A stretch of 64,000 nt of DNA. Source: Brucella pseudogrignonensis (GTDB lineage Bacteria > Pseudomonadota > Alphaproteobacteria > Rhizobiales > Rhizobiaceae). Positions 5,826 to 54,476 of this stretch are shown here, piece after piece (within the stretch, counting starts at the first letter, position 1; every line of letters begins with the position of its first letter). Both the position numbers and the translations under genes were made by a program. Below the pieces are notes generated by a model. That model worked only from the letters and a program-made list of their open reading frames with translations. It ran no database searches and was not told where the DNA came from. Location: the NCBI RefSeq assembly GCF_002252525.1, contig NZ_NNRM01000048.1:1-64000 (forward strand), written 5' to 3'.

Positions 5826-6077
5826 AAATCCTCCCTGAATGCACTTTGCGTGCATTTTGTTGCTGTCTTTGCGACAGCCCTCCTCAAAAACCCCTGCTTC
5901 CCAAGCAGAGACTCCTGATCTGGAGACTACAGGAGAGAATTACAATATACCAGCAAGCAGCATCGCTTGTTTTTACTTGCAATATCGTATTAGCAAAAAG
6001 TCTTATATGGCGATTTTATAAGGCTGAATAAGCGACCCGGCTCGCTTGACGCTTATATCGGCGCGATGTAATACAGT

Positions 6078-6292
6078 TACGACGGTTCCCCGACCGAGAG
6101 TGAAGGGGATTAATAGGGAACACGGTGAGGACGACCCAAAAGGGACCGAGACCGTGGCTGCCCCCGCAACTGTAAGCGGATTGCCGTTCATCCTTGTGAT
6201 GCCTCAAAGCGTCATGTCACTGAGACTGTTCCAAACAGCTCGGGAAGGCAGATGAACAGCGAATATCTGTGAGCCAGGAGACCTGCCGTCTA
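6078..6292 (+). ncRNA. Cobalamin (B12) riboswitch
   Basis: The conserved elements occur in order: GGTTCCCC with AGTGAAGGGGATTAATAGGGAA (6084-6120), GCCCCCGCAACTGTAAGCGG (near 6160-6180), the GTCAC/GGGAAGG part, and the B12 box GAGCCAGGAGACCTGCC at 6271-6287. The architecture is that of an adenosylcobalamin-class aptamer. It precedes the btuF-like gene by about 180 bases and should turn the transporter operon off when cobalamin is plentiful. Confidence 0.93.
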
Positions 6293-6341
6293 ACGTAGTC
6301 CATTGTCACGGGCGGGGATGCCCGGTGCAGGAGAGTTGGTT

Positions 6342-47475: not shown

Positions 47476-48708
47476 ATGTCAAAAATTCAAACTTCGGCTT
47501 CGTTGCCGGAAACTTCGTCACGTTCGCCTGCGCGACTGGCGGAACTAGCACTCGCTATTGGCGGCTTCGGTATCGGCACCGGCGAATTCGCGATCATGGC
47601 ACTTTTGCCGGATATCGCACGCGATCTTCAGGTCGATATGCCTTCAGCGGGTCATCTCATAAGTTCATATGCATTGGGCGTGTTGATCGGTGCGCCGGTG
47701 CTTGCAGTTATTGGTGCAAAGCTTGATCGCCGCAAACTGCTCTTTCTTTTCATGGGACTGTTTGCACTCGGCAATCTGGCCAGTGCATTCATGCAGGACT
47801 ATACCGGTCTTTATATCATGCGTTTTGTTGCGGGCTTTCCGCATGGCGCTTATTTTGGGGTTGCTTCTTTGGTGGCTGCTTCCATGGCGGCGCCCGGAAA
47901 GCGTGCGAAAGCCGTTGGCCGCGTGATGATGGGGCTGACCGTTGCAACATTGTGCGGAACGCCTTTGGCGACATGGCTCGGACAAGTGGCTGGTTGGCGT
48001 GCAATGTTTGCAGCTGTTGGCCTGATCGCTATCCTCACGATGGTATTGGTTACGATATATGTGCCCAAGCAGCCTGCAGACGAAGGTGCTTCGCCGCTGC
48101 GTGAGCTTGGTGCCTTCCGTCGCAAGCAGGTTTGGCTGACCCTTGGAATAGGCGCGATTGGCACCGGCGGATTGTTCTCCGTCTTCACCTATGTGGCTGC
48201 TACCGTGACTGAAGTTTCGCATGTCGATGTGAAATGGATGCCACTGGTCTTTGCTACATTCGGGCTTGGTATGGTGCTTGGCAATATCGTCGGTTCAAAG
48301 CTGACTGACCGCACTGTGATGGGCACTGTTGGAATGGTGCTGCTCTACGACATGGCTGTCATGCTGGCATTTCCATTTTTGATGCAGCATCCGGCCACAG
48401 CATTCTTAAACATATTGCTGGTTGGCGGTGGCTTTGCGCTTGTTCCAGCATTGCAGACGCGCCTTATGGATGTTGCGGCAGATGCGCAGACATTGGCAGC
48501 AGCGCTTAATCATTCAGCACTCAATCTTGCCAATGCGATTGGCGCGTCACTGGGTGGTTTGGCGGTTGCATGGGGATTTGGCTGGACTTCAACCGGAACG
48601 GTCGGTGCGCTTCTGGCAGTTGCCGGTCTTGTCGTGTTTGCAATCTCTATTGCACTGGATCGGATGGGTCGCGAAAAGTCGGCGCTTGCGATACAGGAGG
48701 CTGCATAA
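47476..48708 (+). CDS. MFS transporter, probable drug or sugar efflux
   Basis: A 410-residue membrane protein with twelve helices of the AraJ/YdhP-like MFS group. GIGTGEFAIMALLPDIARDL (about 31-50) is the group's first-helix motif, and DRRKLLFLFMGLFALG is the cytosolic loop-2 motif (LDRRK). Related proteins export arabinose-like sugars, chloramphenicol or purines. The ATG at 47476 has no good separate ribosome binding site; a hairpin covers the area. It is probably not in the RidA operon, since repeats separate them. Confidence 0.85.
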   Translation: MSKIQTSASLPETSSRSPARLAELALAIGGFGIGTGEFAIMALLPDIARDLQVDMPSAGHLISSYALGVLIGAPVLAVIGAKLDRRKLLFLFMGLFALGNLASAFMQDYTGLYIMRFVAGFPHGAYFGVASLVAASMAAPGKRAKAVGRVMMGLTVATLCGTPLATWLGQVAGWRAMFAAVGLIAILTMVLVTIYVPKQPADEGASPLRELGAFRRKQVWLTLGIGAIGTGGLFSVFTYVAATVTEVSHVDVKWMPLVFATFGLGMVLGNIVGSKLTDRTVMGTVGMVLLYDMAVMLAFPFLMQHPATAFLNILLVGGGFALVPALQTRLMDVAADAQTLAAALNHSALNLANAIGASLGGLAVAWGFGWTSTGTVGALLAVAGLVVFAISIALDRMGREKSALAIQEAA

Positions 48709-48709
48709 A

Positions 48710-48811
48710 GCATTTCCAGCAAAAGTGCGAAACGGTTTTGCGTAGGATAATGCGTAAAAACAAGTACTTACAGAGGTTCCGACGATTCAGTCTTAACAGG
48801 AGCCGTTGTTA
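48710..48811 (+). repeat. Dispersed composite repeat, family B copy 2
   Basis: CATTTCCAGCAAAAGTGCGAAA, GGTTTTGCGTAGGATAATGCG and AAAACAA, followed by the second module AGAGGTTCC...GATTC and GGAGCCG. It closely matches 9356-9470 and the inverse of 60809-60912. Confidence 0.6.
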
Positions 48812-48960
48812 AAAAACAACACCCGCCGCGGGAGGAGCGGCGGGTGTCATTTAGGGTAAGACCGGCTTGGGAGGAGGAGTTCCGGTCTTGCGGTCACCGG
48901 GGGAATGGGAGGAAAACGCCCCGGCAAAAACCTTGGAAACTGTGAGGACCGCGCGGTTTA
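48811..48960 (-). ncRNA. Tandem anti-Shine-Dalgarno hairpin RNA (Cuckoo/CcsR or alpha-r14-like)
   Basis: On the minus strand three hairpins follow one another: 48919-48924 with 48897-48902 (loop containing TCCTCCC), 48882-48889 with 48858-48865 (loop CTCCTCCTCCC), and 48837-48847 with 48819-48829, a perfect 11-pair stem with loop TCCTCCC followed by TGTTTTTT at 48811-48818, i.e. a terminator. All three loops complement Shine-Dalgarno sequences. The RNA lies directly downstream of a DUF1127 gene on the same strand, the arrangement known for Cuckoo RNAs. The 5' end is not fixed; processing from the DUF1127 message is likely. Confidence 0.72.
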
Positions 48961-49004
48961 AAGGGTCGCGGTCCAGAAAAAGGCGGGTGCCTTTCGAGGC
49001 GCTA

Positions 49005-49151
49005 TTAGCGAGCAGCTGCCTTGCGTGCAACGAACGGGATTTCCGAAGCAAGAATGCCAAGGTCGTTCAGTTCGCGTGGGCTCAGGCGGCTCAGTTCATT
49101 TACCGTGTTACGGTAGCGGCGCCAGTTGTTGTACGAGCGGATCAGGTTCAT
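49005..49151 (-). CDS. DUF1127 small basic protein
   Basis: A 48-residue protein: MNLIRSYNNWRRYRNTVNEL at the start, RLSPRELNDLGI in the middle and FVARKAAAR at the end, a textbook short DUF1127 protein. GGTGAGAG precedes the ATG. In Rhodobacter a DUF1127 protein (CcaF1) binds RNA and its mRNA carries CCUCCUCCC-motif small RNAs in the 3' part. Here the same motif is seen in three hairpins 45-190 bases downstream. A GGC/GCC hairpin with CTTTTTC at 48980-48992 may partly terminate between them. CTATAT near 49195 may be the -10 element. Confidence 0.88.
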   Translation of the reverse strand: MNLIRSYNNWRRYRNTVNELSRLSPRELNDLGILASEIPFVARKAAAR

Positions 49152-49576
49152 TTCTCTCACCTAGTAAAATCTTATCTCTCTGTGTTGCGAACAGCATATA
49201 GGCTCGATGATTTCGGAAGTGGAGAGACAGATTTGCATAGCTGCTGTGCAATTTAGCCTGTCGATTGCATGGCTTTTGCGCAGCTTGGTCATTTTATAAT
49301 CACAATCATCATGCCGACTGCCCAAATCACCAATTTGAGCGCCCTTTATGGCCTCAATCCTTAATGGATTGTAAATTTCCAGCAATATTCACTAATGTAA
49401 GGGACTTTGTTAGAGGGTTCTTTTGCGCTTTCGGGAAAGATCGATTTTTGTCGCAAAATCCCCGGGAATTGTCGTCTCGTGACAATAATTATACATGACA
49501 CCAGAAACGGTTTAAGCTAAGTGACTTATGTCGTGTGATGGAGCTTTGCGTTTTACGAGAATGTTCTGTCACTGTT
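49152..49576. other. Divergent promoter region of DUF1127 gene and gcv operon
   Basis: No gene is seen. The left part holds CTATAT (minus strand, near 49192-49197), a probable -10 element for the DUF1127 gene. The right part is AT-rich around 49488-49495 (AATTATAC), a possible -10 region for the transcript carrying the glycine riboswitch. Confidence 0.4.
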
Positions 49577-49757
49577 TGTCTGCGGGAGAGAGCTGACGCA
49601 AGTTGGCCACCGAAGGGGAAATCGCCCGAAATCTCTCAGGTACAAGGAACCGCAGACGGGTAAGGCAACTCTGGAAAGTCGGGGGAAACCCCGCGCCGAA
49701 GGTGTAAGTATAGCTTTATAGCTATGCGAGTCTCTCAGGCTTGAGACAGAGGGGCAC
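49577..49757 (+). ncRNA. Tandem glycine riboswitch
   Basis: Two consecutive aptamers: the first has GCGGGAGAGAGC, CCACCGAAGGGG and ATCTCTCAGGTACAAGGAACCGC (49581-49655); the second has ACTCTGGAAAG, CGCCGAAGG and TCTCTCAGGC...GACAGAGGGG (49668-49754). A short linker (TAAGGCA) joins them. It lies 48 bases before gcvT and should switch on glycine cleavage genes when glycine is high. No clear terminator precedes gcvT, so translational control near ACTCTGGAGT (49791-49800) is possible. Confidence 0.95.
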
Positions 49758-49804
49758 GAAGCAACCGCATTTCGCGGAGGCATACGTGCGACTCTGGAGT
49801 TGTT

Positions 49805-50908
49805 ATGGGCGATACCGCACACTTGAATACCCTGCCTTTGCAGGATCTGCATGAGGAAGCTGGCGCACGCTTTGGCGGTTTTGCTGGCTGGAACATGCCG
49901 ATCACCTATCCGCTTGGCGTGATGAAGGAACATCTTCATACGCGTGAGCATGTCGGTCTTTTCGATATTTCTCATATGAAGCTGATTGAAGTTTCGGGCG
50001 CAGATGCAATCGCGCTTTTGAGCGAAACCTGTCCGCTTGATCCTTCGGTTCTGAAAACCGGTCAGTCGAAATATACTTTCTTTCTCAATGACCAAGGCGG
50101 CGTTCTTGATGATCTTATCGTCACGCGCCTTGGCGAAGACCGTTTCATGGTCGTTGCCAATGCGGGCAACGCTGATGCCGATATTGAGCATCTCAATGAA
50201 GCAGCATCTGGCAAGGATGTAACGGTCAATCCACTGGATCGCGTTTTCCTGGCCATTCAGGGTCCGGAAGCCGAAAGCGTCATTACCGATGCCGGTCTTA
50301 AAGGTGCAGAGCTCGGCTTTATGAGCGGCTTTGAACCTAATCCTAACTGGTTCATGACCCGTTCGGGCTATACCGGCGAAGATGGTTTTGAAATTGGCTT
50401 GCCTGCCGATGAGGCGCGCGCGCTTGCAACCAAGCTTCTGGCTGACGAACGCGTCGAATGGATCGGTCTTGCTGCCCGCGATTCCTTACGCCTTGAAGCG
50501 GGTCTTTGCCTGCACGGTCAGGATATTACGCCGGAAACCGATCCGGTCTCTGCTGGTCTTACATGGGCAATCACCAAGTCAGTGCGTGAAAAGGCTGCCT
50601 TCAATGGCGCCAAAGCAGTTCTGGATGCGATTGCCAAGGGTGCAACCGCCAAGCGTGTTGGCCTTAAGCCGGAAGGCCGCCAGCCAGTGCGTGGCGGCGC
50701 AGAACTTTTCGACGAATCCGGTTTTCAGATCGGCACCGTCACATCGGGTGGCTTCGGTCCATCCGCAGGGTTCCCTGTTGCCATGGGTTATGTCGAGGCA
50801 AGCCTCGCAGTCCCAGGTACCCGCATTTTCGCAGACGTCCGCGGTAACAAGGTTCCCGTTGATGTTCATGCACTTCCCTTCACACCGCATCGCTATCGCA
50901 AAGGATGA
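49805..50908 (+). CDS. gcvT: Glycine cleavage system T protein (aminomethyltransferase)
   Basis: A 367-residue folate-binding enzyme that moves the aminomethyl group of the lipoylated H protein to tetrahydrofolate, releasing ammonia. [23 protein letters not shown] and [15 protein letters not shown] are the N-terminal family landmarks; the conserved Asp for catalysis lies in the DCDR-equivalent [14 protein letters not shown] region, and [10 protein letters not shown] is the folate-site motif. A GGAG site precedes the ATG. It leads the gcvT-gcvH-gcvP operon behind the glycine riboswitch. Confidence 0.96.
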
Positions 50909-54365: not shown

Positions 54366-54476
54366 AAAAAAAGAGCCGGACTAAAAAGTCCGGCTAAGTT
54401 ATGAAGGTGCCATAAAGGCAAACCTCCAGAGGGGAACACTTACCGCGCGCAATGGGAGGAGGCGCAAGCGGTAAGC
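54366..54476 (-). ncRNA. Anti-Shine-Dalgarno small RNA (alpha-r14-like)
   Basis: On the minus strand, CTTACCGC/GCGGTAAG (54468-54475 with 54439-54446) and an inner GCGC stem display CCTCCTCCC in the loop. A smaller stem-loop follows near 54407-54424, then a perfect terminator AGCCGGAC/GTCCGGCT (54374-54395) with seven T at 54366-54372. Upstream, TTGAAG and CATATG are spaced by 17 bases (to 54483), predicting a start near 54476. Size about 111 bases, motif and three-domain form fit the alpha-r14 family of Rhizobiales. Confidence 0.72.

What the first reader, a model, noticed from the sequence alone, without database searches (positions are those of the whole stretch)
48811..49151. DUF1127 gene followed by three tandem hairpins with anti-Shine-Dalgarno loops
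Seen directly: on the minus strand a 48-residue DUF1127 gene is followed by three stem-loops with 6, 8 and 11 perfect pairs. The loops contain TCCTCCC, CTCCTCCTCCC and TCCTCCC, and the third is a terminator. Known: in Rhodobacter, DUF1127 mRNAs carry CCUCCUCCC-motif 'Cuckoo' (CcsR) RNAs that are processed from the 3' part and expressed under stress. Inference: this is the same module in a Brucella-type genome, an mRNA that encodes a small RNA-binding protein and releases a multi-hairpin RNA able to mask ribosome binding sites or bind an RNA-binding protein.
Basis: partly seen in the sequence, partly recalled or inferred. Interest (0 to 1): 0.85.

Follow-up and report, generated by a model that had tools for sequence, protein, structure and literature searches.

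The report
Small-protein gene with built-in regulatory RNA
One gene appears to make both a tiny arginine-rich protein and, from the tail of the same message, a three-hairpin regulatory RNA that can cover the ribosome-binding sites of other genes; both halves are known, but here they sit together behind what looks like one shared control switch.

Summary
On the minus strand a 48-residue DUF1127 gene is followed by three hairpins with anti-Shine-Dalgarno loops. The hairpins match Rfam ar14 above threshold (RF02344, 76.1 bits, cut-off 58.8), the family of the S. meliloti sRNA NfeR1, not CcsR1 (15.7 bits, cut-off 65.3). Stems covary (15 of 31 pairs change on both sides; 0 of 500 shuffles). The ORF is under strong protein-level constraint. 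Gene and RNA stay linked: ar14 follows in 77 of 80 named loci and in 28 of 30 loci sampled over the family.

An exact match to the published VtlR/LsrB box lies 46 nt before a CTATAT element; the box is in 35 of 35 genus genomes and 76 of 80 named loci (control stretches 33 of 880). In 37 of 77 loci at most 30 nt separate stop codon and ar14. Best reading: one VtlR/LsrB-activated mRNA that encodes the protein and is cut to release an ar14 sRNA.

DUF1127 with such RNAs (CIN1 locus), VtlR control of DUF1127 genes and LsrB control of NfeR1 are each known. Joining them is the new part: phenotypes credited to these small proteins may partly be RNA effects. Nothing here shows expression or binding.

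The parts
49235..49247 (-). VtlR/LsrB box (A-N3-CA-N3-ATGC on the minus strand = GCAT-N3-TG-N3-T on the plus strand)
   Evidence: Exact match to the published consensus (PMC7486931, passage); found; in 35 of 35 genus genomes, the window's own included, and 76 of 80 named loci against 33 of 880 control stretches
49196..49201 (-). CTATAT, putative -10 element, 46 nt from box start
   Evidence: Sequence; the distance is 46 in 44 of the 46 named loci that have a box in this orientation and CTATAT, 44 and 45 in the other two
49156..49162 (-). Shine-Dalgarno AGGTGAG of DUF1127, lacking GGAGG
   Evidence: GGAGG in 0 of 80 named loci within 20 nt of the start
49005..49151 (-). DUF1127 coding sequence, 48 aa plus stop
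   Evidence: PF06568 55.8 bits; non-synonymous/synonymous codon differences 0.12 against 2.96 expected without selection, 35 genus orthologues, 30 distinct
48978..48995 (-). Short stem after the stop codon (no anti-SD loop), followed by a T-run; could be a weak terminator
   Evidence: Fold; similar sequence in the aligned relatives
48946..48974 (-). Second stem without anti-SD loop (GGACCGCG/CGCGGTCC)
   Evidence: Fold; in rows L092 and L100 of A4 a G-C pair becomes A-T on both sides (by eye)
48892..48932 (-). ar14 hairpin 1, loop with TTTTCCTCCC
   Evidence: 6 of 10 pairs with changes on both sides
48858..48889 (-). ar14 hairpin 2, loop with CTCCTCCTCCC
   Evidence: 2 of 9 pairs with changes on both sides
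48811..48852 (-). ar14 hairpin 3 with loop word CTCCTCCC and T-run: terminator
   Evidence: 7 of 12 pairs with changes on both sides
48814..48932 (-). ar14 sRNA as a whole (RF02344)
   Evidence: 76.1 bits, cut-off 58.8, full model 1-123

Best explanation
A VtlR/LsrB-activated, sigma-70-type promoter makes one short mRNA. Its 5' part is translated into a 48-aa DUF1127 protein; its 3' part ends in an ar14 (NfeR1-type) three-hairpin RNA whose third stem is the terminator. An endonuclease cut between the stop codon and hairpin 1 (RNase E, by analogy with ccaF1-CcsR) frees the roughly 120-nt sRNA, which uses its anti-SD loops to block ribosome binding on mRNAs with a GGGAGGAG-like site, several of them for sugar and solute uptake. 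The DUF1127 mRNA's own site (AGGTGAG) largely escapes. Shown by sequence: gene, ar14 membership, covariation, linkage, conserved box with fixed spacing. Inferred: co-transcription, cutting, VtlR binding here, target silencing.
For: ar14 above cut-off; covariation; protein constraint. Linkage: ar14 at or above cut-off downstream on the same strand in 77 of 80 named loci; the other three (L079, L120, L121) show three degenerate hairpins by eye; 28 of the 30 best loci of the family sample. Stop codon to ar14: median 46 nt, at most 30 nt in 37 of 77, which leaves little room for a second promoter there; the window's own 72-nt spacer holds no box and no CTATAT. Box and spacing. Literature: VtlR directly activates bab1_0914 and bab2_0512 and their Agrobacterium orthologue atu1667 (PMC7486931, passages); three DUF1127 genes are VtlR-dependent in B. 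melitensis (PMC12595884, passages); LsrB activates NfeR1 and its loops silence ntrB (PMC10746234, passages and section 5). Duplex energy of the loop-2 sequence with 26 candidate sites, chosen for complementarity: median -18.5 kcal/mol; own site -7.1.
Against: No transcript data were available. Loops 1 and 3 of the window copy are shortened, so it may be a weaker silencer than its orthologues. In 40 of 77 loci, the window type among them, the spacer exceeds 30 nt (up to 139), so a second promoter is not excluded by space alone. Four named loci (L102, L107, L108, L141) lack an exact box; so do 8 of 30 in the family sample, and in one more no start codon was found by my script (no control run there). 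A stem plus T-run just after the stop codon could end some transcripts before ar14. One small genome (G064, locus L232/L249) keeps DUF1127 and the box but shows no anti-SD words behind the gene, so the protein can stand without the RNA.
Confidence: 0.75

Rival explanations
1. The hairpins are only a terminator and 3' stabiliser of the DUF1127 mRNA; the RNA has no role in trans.
For: The third stem is terminator-like. Loops 1 and 3 of the window copy are degenerate.
Against: A terminator does not need three hairpins with the same loop word kept across relatives while stems change by compensation. Stand-alone members exist: 4 of the 7 ar14 copies above cut-off in this genome have no DUF1127 gene next to them. 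NfeR1 of the same family silences targets through these loops (PMC10746234, passages).
Confidence: 0.09
2. The RNA part is the working product and the 48-aa ORF only a leader (sRNA gene with incidental ORF).
For: PMC7486931 left open whether atu1667 acts as protein or RNA (passage).
Against: Strong purifying selection on the protein: 0.12 against 2.96; Pfam match; Agrobacterium small DUF1127 proteins are reported to act at the sensor kinase PhoR (PMC12501420, section 32); L249 keeps the gene without the RNA.
Confidence: 0.04
3. ar14 here has its own promoter, and DUF1127 and sRNA are separate adjacent genes.
For: NfeR1 in S. meliloti is transcribed from its own sigma-70 promoter (PMC10746234, passage); 72 nt separate stop codon and ar14 in the window, and more than 30 nt in 40 of 77 loci.
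Against: No box or CTATAT in the window's 72 nt; at most 30 nt in 37 of 77 loci; the conserved promoter lies before the gene.
Confidence: 0.12

Closest known systems
Rfam RF02344 ar14 / NfeR1 of Sinorhizobium meliloti
   Same: Three hairpins, anti-SD loops, terminator third stem, LsrB/VtlR-type box upstream, several copies per genome (7 above cut-off here)
   Different: NfeR1 is described as a stand-alone sRNA with its own promoter; this copy sits behind a DUF1127 gene with no promoter of its own recognised. Only loop 2 has the full CCUCCUCCC.
ccaF1-CcsR1-4 of Rhodobacter sphaeroides and the 'CIN1 locus' (Reinkensmeier and Giegerich 2015, not held; known to me through PMC10253847)
   Same: Short DUF1127 gene followed by anti-SD-loop RNAs; co-transcribed in Rhodobacter
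   Different: RNA scores 15.7 bits on CcsR1 (cut-off 65.3); ar14 instead of CcsR1-4; LysR-type box instead of an RpoHI/RpoHII promoter
VtlR-dependent DUF1127 genes bab1_0914/bab2_0512 (Brucella), atu1667 (Agrobacterium)
   Same: Short DUF1127 protein, same box, direct VtlR activation reported
   Different: In the passages I saw these are treated as protein genes, or left open for atu1667; NfeR1 does not occur in PMC7486931 or PMC12595884. That the window gene is the orthologue of bab2_0512 in particular was not tested.

Membership tests
Rfam ar14 (RF02344) | Covariance-model score at or above the gathering score | tested here: met
   76.1 against 58.8 bits, model 1-123
Rfam ar14 (RF02344) | Three covarying hairpins, third a terminator | tested here: met
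   (15 of 31 pairs with changes on both sides; 0 of 500 shuffles; 97.7% of cells paired, slid controls at most 49.4%)
Rfam ar14 (RF02344) | CCUCCUCCC in each loop | tested here: inconclusive
   Full word in loop 2 only; loops 1 and 3 have TCCTCCC and CTCCTCCC. The consensus of 33 aligned copies has the full word in loop 1 but not in loop 3
Rfam ar14 (RF02344) | Expressed as a trans-acting sRNA of about 120 nt | not testable with these tools
   Needs RNA data
CcsR1 (RF02791) | Covariance-model score at or above the gathering score | tested here: not met
   15.7 against 65.3 bits
CIN1-type DUF1127 plus anti-SD RNA locus | Short DUF1127 gene directly upstream on the same strand | tested here: met
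   77 of 80 named loci
CIN1-type DUF1127 plus anti-SD RNA locus | Co-transcription and cutting by RNase E with help of the DUF1127 protein | not testable with these tools
   Reported for ccaF1-CcsR (PMC10253847, PMC8625941, passages)
VtlR/LsrB regulon | GCAT-N3-TG-N3-T box at a promoter-like distance | tested here: met
VtlR/LsrB regulon | Binding and activation by VtlR/LsrB | not testable with these tools
   Reported for atu1667, bab1_0914, bab2_0512 (PMC7486931, passages)
DUF1127 (PF06568) | Pfam score at or above the curated cut-off | tested here: met
   55.8 against 23.3 bits
RNA-binding DUF1127 protein (CcaF1 type) | Binds RNA | not testable with these tools
   No assay; disputed within DUF1127 (PMC12501420, section 32)

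The most novel reading that the evidence does not exclude
Across the family that holds Brucella, Phyllobacterium and relatives, the VtlR/LsrB regulator works largely through protein-plus-sRNA messages: each activation delivers a DUF1127 protein and one to four ar14 RNAs together. The sugar-use phenotypes now credited to the small DUF1127 proteins would then be in good part effects of the ar14 RNA on transporter mRNAs, and the DUF1127 start site would have evolved to escape its own RNA.
Probability: 0.3. Interest if true: 0.7.

Novelty: new member of a known kind. Interest (0 to 1): 0.47.

Why it matters
How VtlR/LsrB changes sugar use, and whether DUF1127 proteins act on RNA or on proteins, are open in the papers seen (passages and one section). 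If the same message also gives an ar14 sRNA, deletions and over-expression of the 'small protein' genes must be read again, depending on whether the RNA part was removed or included. It turns a vague link into a simple test: break the protein and the RNA separately.

Tried and rejected
Rejected: membership in CcsR1; the weaker Rfam matches 6C, ncr1175, anti-hemB and sX13, all below their cut-offs; the idea that the ORF is incidental. A sigma-70 consensus scan found no promoter in 48000-50000; the promoter was recognised only by comparison with relatives and the published box.

Weak result, reported as such: ORFs behind the 26 matches of this genome to GGGAGGAGN{3,8}ATG (pattern read backwards: 3 matches). 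Three were dropped for ORFs under 40 aa; 8 of 23 encode solute-uptake proteins by Pfam (L158, L159, L164, L168, L169, L179, L180, L182). Control site AAAGGAGAN{3,8}ATG: 35 matches, 30 fetched; 1 short, 2 duplicates and L190 (not parsed) dropped; 2 of 26 (L194, L211). Fisher p = 0.03. I sorted the proteins after seeing them.

Limits of the counts. Box counts use an exact 13-base pattern; of the 76 named loci, 62 have it in the window's orientation and 14 only in the other. Loci are related and several are paralogues of one species, so counts are not independent events. Only the best 80 of at least 506 relatives were kept, and only the 30 best loci of 95 matching genomes were examined, so linkage is shown for the closest DUF1127 clade, not for DUF1127 in general: 4 of the 7 DUF1127 matches above cut-off in this genome have no ar14 next to them. 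The covariation alignment holds the window and 32 of the 80 named loci (window type and nearest); L079, below cut-off and with degenerate loops, and 47 other loci were left out. Adjacency over the tables was not computed, because both are truncated. In one search part of the printed alignment was cut from view. No structure prediction was made. Odds: after finding that only 37 of 77 loci (not most) have a short spacer, I lowered the main reading from 0.78 to 0.75 and raised two rivals slightly.

Literature limits: Reinkensmeier and Giegerich 2015, Gruetzner 2021 and Budnick 2018 are not held; what I say of them comes from other papers. That the VtlR-box/DUF1127/ar14 combination is not in print rests on searches of one open-access library; a wider search returned nothing and is uninformative. 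No paper was read whole.

Full report
What is there. On the minus strand, a 48-residue DUF1127 gene (ATG 49151, stop 49005; 55.8 bits) is followed after 72 nt by an RNA of family ar14 (48932-48814, 76.1 bits against a cut-off of 58.8). Folding is far better than shuffles (z -6.5). Two more stems without anti-SD loops stand between stop codon and ar14; one keeps its pairing through a G-C to A-T change in L092 and L100 (by eye).

Is it real RNA. In 33 aligned ar14 copies, the window and 32 of the 80 named loci (MAFFT, not fitted to a structure; 31 distinct; L079 left out), the three stems form standard pairs in 97.7% of cells, 15 of 31 pairs show changes on both sides, and 0 of 500 shuffles reach the observed value on any of the five measures; slid structures reach at most 49.4% paired. 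I read the pairs from a relative's row, which favours them over slid versions, and related sequences can beat shuffles without structure; the double changes are the stronger point. Pseudochrobactrum-type loci have a wholly different but complementary first stem.

Is it a real protein. All 35 genomes of the genus that are held, the window's own included, keep a 48-aa ORF (30 distinct sequences); variable sites by codon position are 10, 5, 37; non-synonymous over synonymous single-site codon differences 0.12, against 2.96 without selection. Pairs of sequences are not independent.

Linkage. One search fetched 80 named loci of the short DUF1127 clade (Brucella/Ochrobactrum, Falsochrobactrum, Pseudochrobactrum, Paenochrobactrum, Phyllobacterium, Paramesorhizobium, Mesorhizobium and unplaced bins). 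ar14 at or above cut-off follows on the same strand in 19 of 20, 20 of 20, 18 of 20 and 20 of 20, 77 of 80; L079, L120 and L121 show three hairpins with degenerate loops by eye. In 101 genomes drawn evenly over the family, 95 match the protein profile; the 30 best loci, one per genome and from 29 genera (this genome and one more of its genus among them), were examined: 28 have ar14 at or above cut-off close behind the gene (in L235, L239 and L240 a second DUF1127 gene lies between), L219 has three loop words but no match at cut-off, and L232 none. In several, ar14 is repeated in tandem: 3 copies in L225, L233, L239 and 4 in L221.

The promoter. The published VtlR box GCAT-N3-TG-N3-T (PMC7486931, passages) matches exactly at 49235-49247, 96 nt before the ATG. 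The window holds 16 matches on both strands, as many as chance gives (17.0), so the single match proves nothing. Conservation does: 30 of 30 plus 5 of 5 genus orthologues, where the first N3 varies (CAG, TTG, AAG, CAT, GGG, CGG) inside an otherwise constant GCA-N3-CAGCTATGCAAAT stretch (the second N3 is GCT throughout); 76 of 80 named loci within 200 nt of the start codon, against 33 of 880 other 200-nt stretches of the same loci; and a distance of 46 nt to CTATAT in 44 of 46 loci with both, although the distance to the ATG ranges from 88 to 116. In the family sample 21 of 30 have a box within 300 nt; no control was run there. In this genome a match also lies upstream of the other two DUF1127-ar14 units (C14, C36), close upstream of three stand-alone ar14 copies (C8, C38, C48), and, one letter off the 15-base Brucella motif, before a DUF1127 gene on C8 with an ar14 2.6 kb further on; the ar14 on C42:196839 has none near.

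How it likely works. One conserved promoter and one strong terminator bracket gene and RNA, and 37 of 77 loci have at most 30 nt between stop codon and ar14 (3 to 139, median 46). This points to one message from which ar14 is cut, as CcsR RNAs are from the ccaF1 message by RNase E (PMC8625941, PMC10253847, passages). NfeR1, the founding ar14, is LsrB-activated and silences ntrB by covering its ribosome-binding site with any of three redundant loops (PMC10746234, passages and section 5). Genes here with the exact partner GGGAGGAG before ATG include more uptake proteins (8 of 23) than a control set (2 of 26; p = 0.03, weak). The DUF1127 site AGGTGAG pairs poorly with the loop (-7.1 kcal/mol, against a median of -18.5 for the 26 sites, chosen for complementarity, and -8.0 for the control sites); none of 80 named loci has GGAGG there; over the 80 the median is -7.1, and 3 pair better than -12 (lowest -14.1). 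So self-silencing is not expected in most.

What is known. DUF1127 with CcsR-like RNAs is known as the CIN1 locus (stated in PMC10253847, passage). ar14/NfeR1, its loops, and its presence in Brucellaceae are known (PMC7143759, passages; PMC3927594, passages and section 2.7). VtlR activation of three DUF1127 genes and a link to fucose use are known in Brucella (PMC12595884, passages). I did not find a paper that joins these: searches showed none by their listings, DUF1127 does not occur in the NfeR1 paper, nor NfeR1 in the Brucella VtlR paper. The cuckoo-family paper itself could not be read and may hold part of it.

Verdict. A conserved and covarying protein-plus-RNA unit; a new member of a known kind. 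Its worth lies in the shared VtlR/LsrB-type promoter, which makes the protein-or-RNA question for these genes directly testable.

Noticed in passing
window 54368-54476 (-): An ar15 (AbcR-type) sRNA, 65.3 bits, lies beyond three plus-strand genes that I read as gcvTHP (by eye), same strand as DUF1127-ar14. In L110, L112, L113, L114, L117 and L119 (6 of 80) ar15 lies about 210-280 nt upstream of DUF1127-ar14, same order and direction, so gcvTHP may sit inside an otherwise linked sRNA cluster here.
   Followed up: partly
window 49573-49662 (+): Glycine riboswitch (61.6 bits) before the presumed gcvT, divergent from the DUF1127 unit; a glycine riboswitch is the neighbour in all 20 loci and six more.
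   Followed up: no
L221, L225, L233, L239: DUF1127 gene followed by three or four ar14 copies in tandem.
   Followed up: no
L232 / L249 (unnamed 1.1-Mb genome G064): Short DUF1127 gene and VtlR-type box kept, but no anti-SD words in the 330-400 nt behind the gene: the RNA seems lost while the protein stays.
   Followed up: partly
G000 contigs C38, C48, C42:196839 (L002, L004, L005): Three stand-alone ar14 copies of similar sequence without a DUF1127 neighbour.
   Followed up: no
L104, L153: Records titled Bacillus subtilis and Xylophilus carry Brucellaceae-type DUF1127-ar14 loci; probably mislabelled or contaminated assemblies.
   Followed up: no
window 6066-6304 (+): Cobalamin riboswitch, 104 bits.
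   Followed up: no
window 48978-48995 (-): Short stem followed by a T-run directly after the DUF1127 stop codon; might let some transcripts end before ar14.
   Followed up: no
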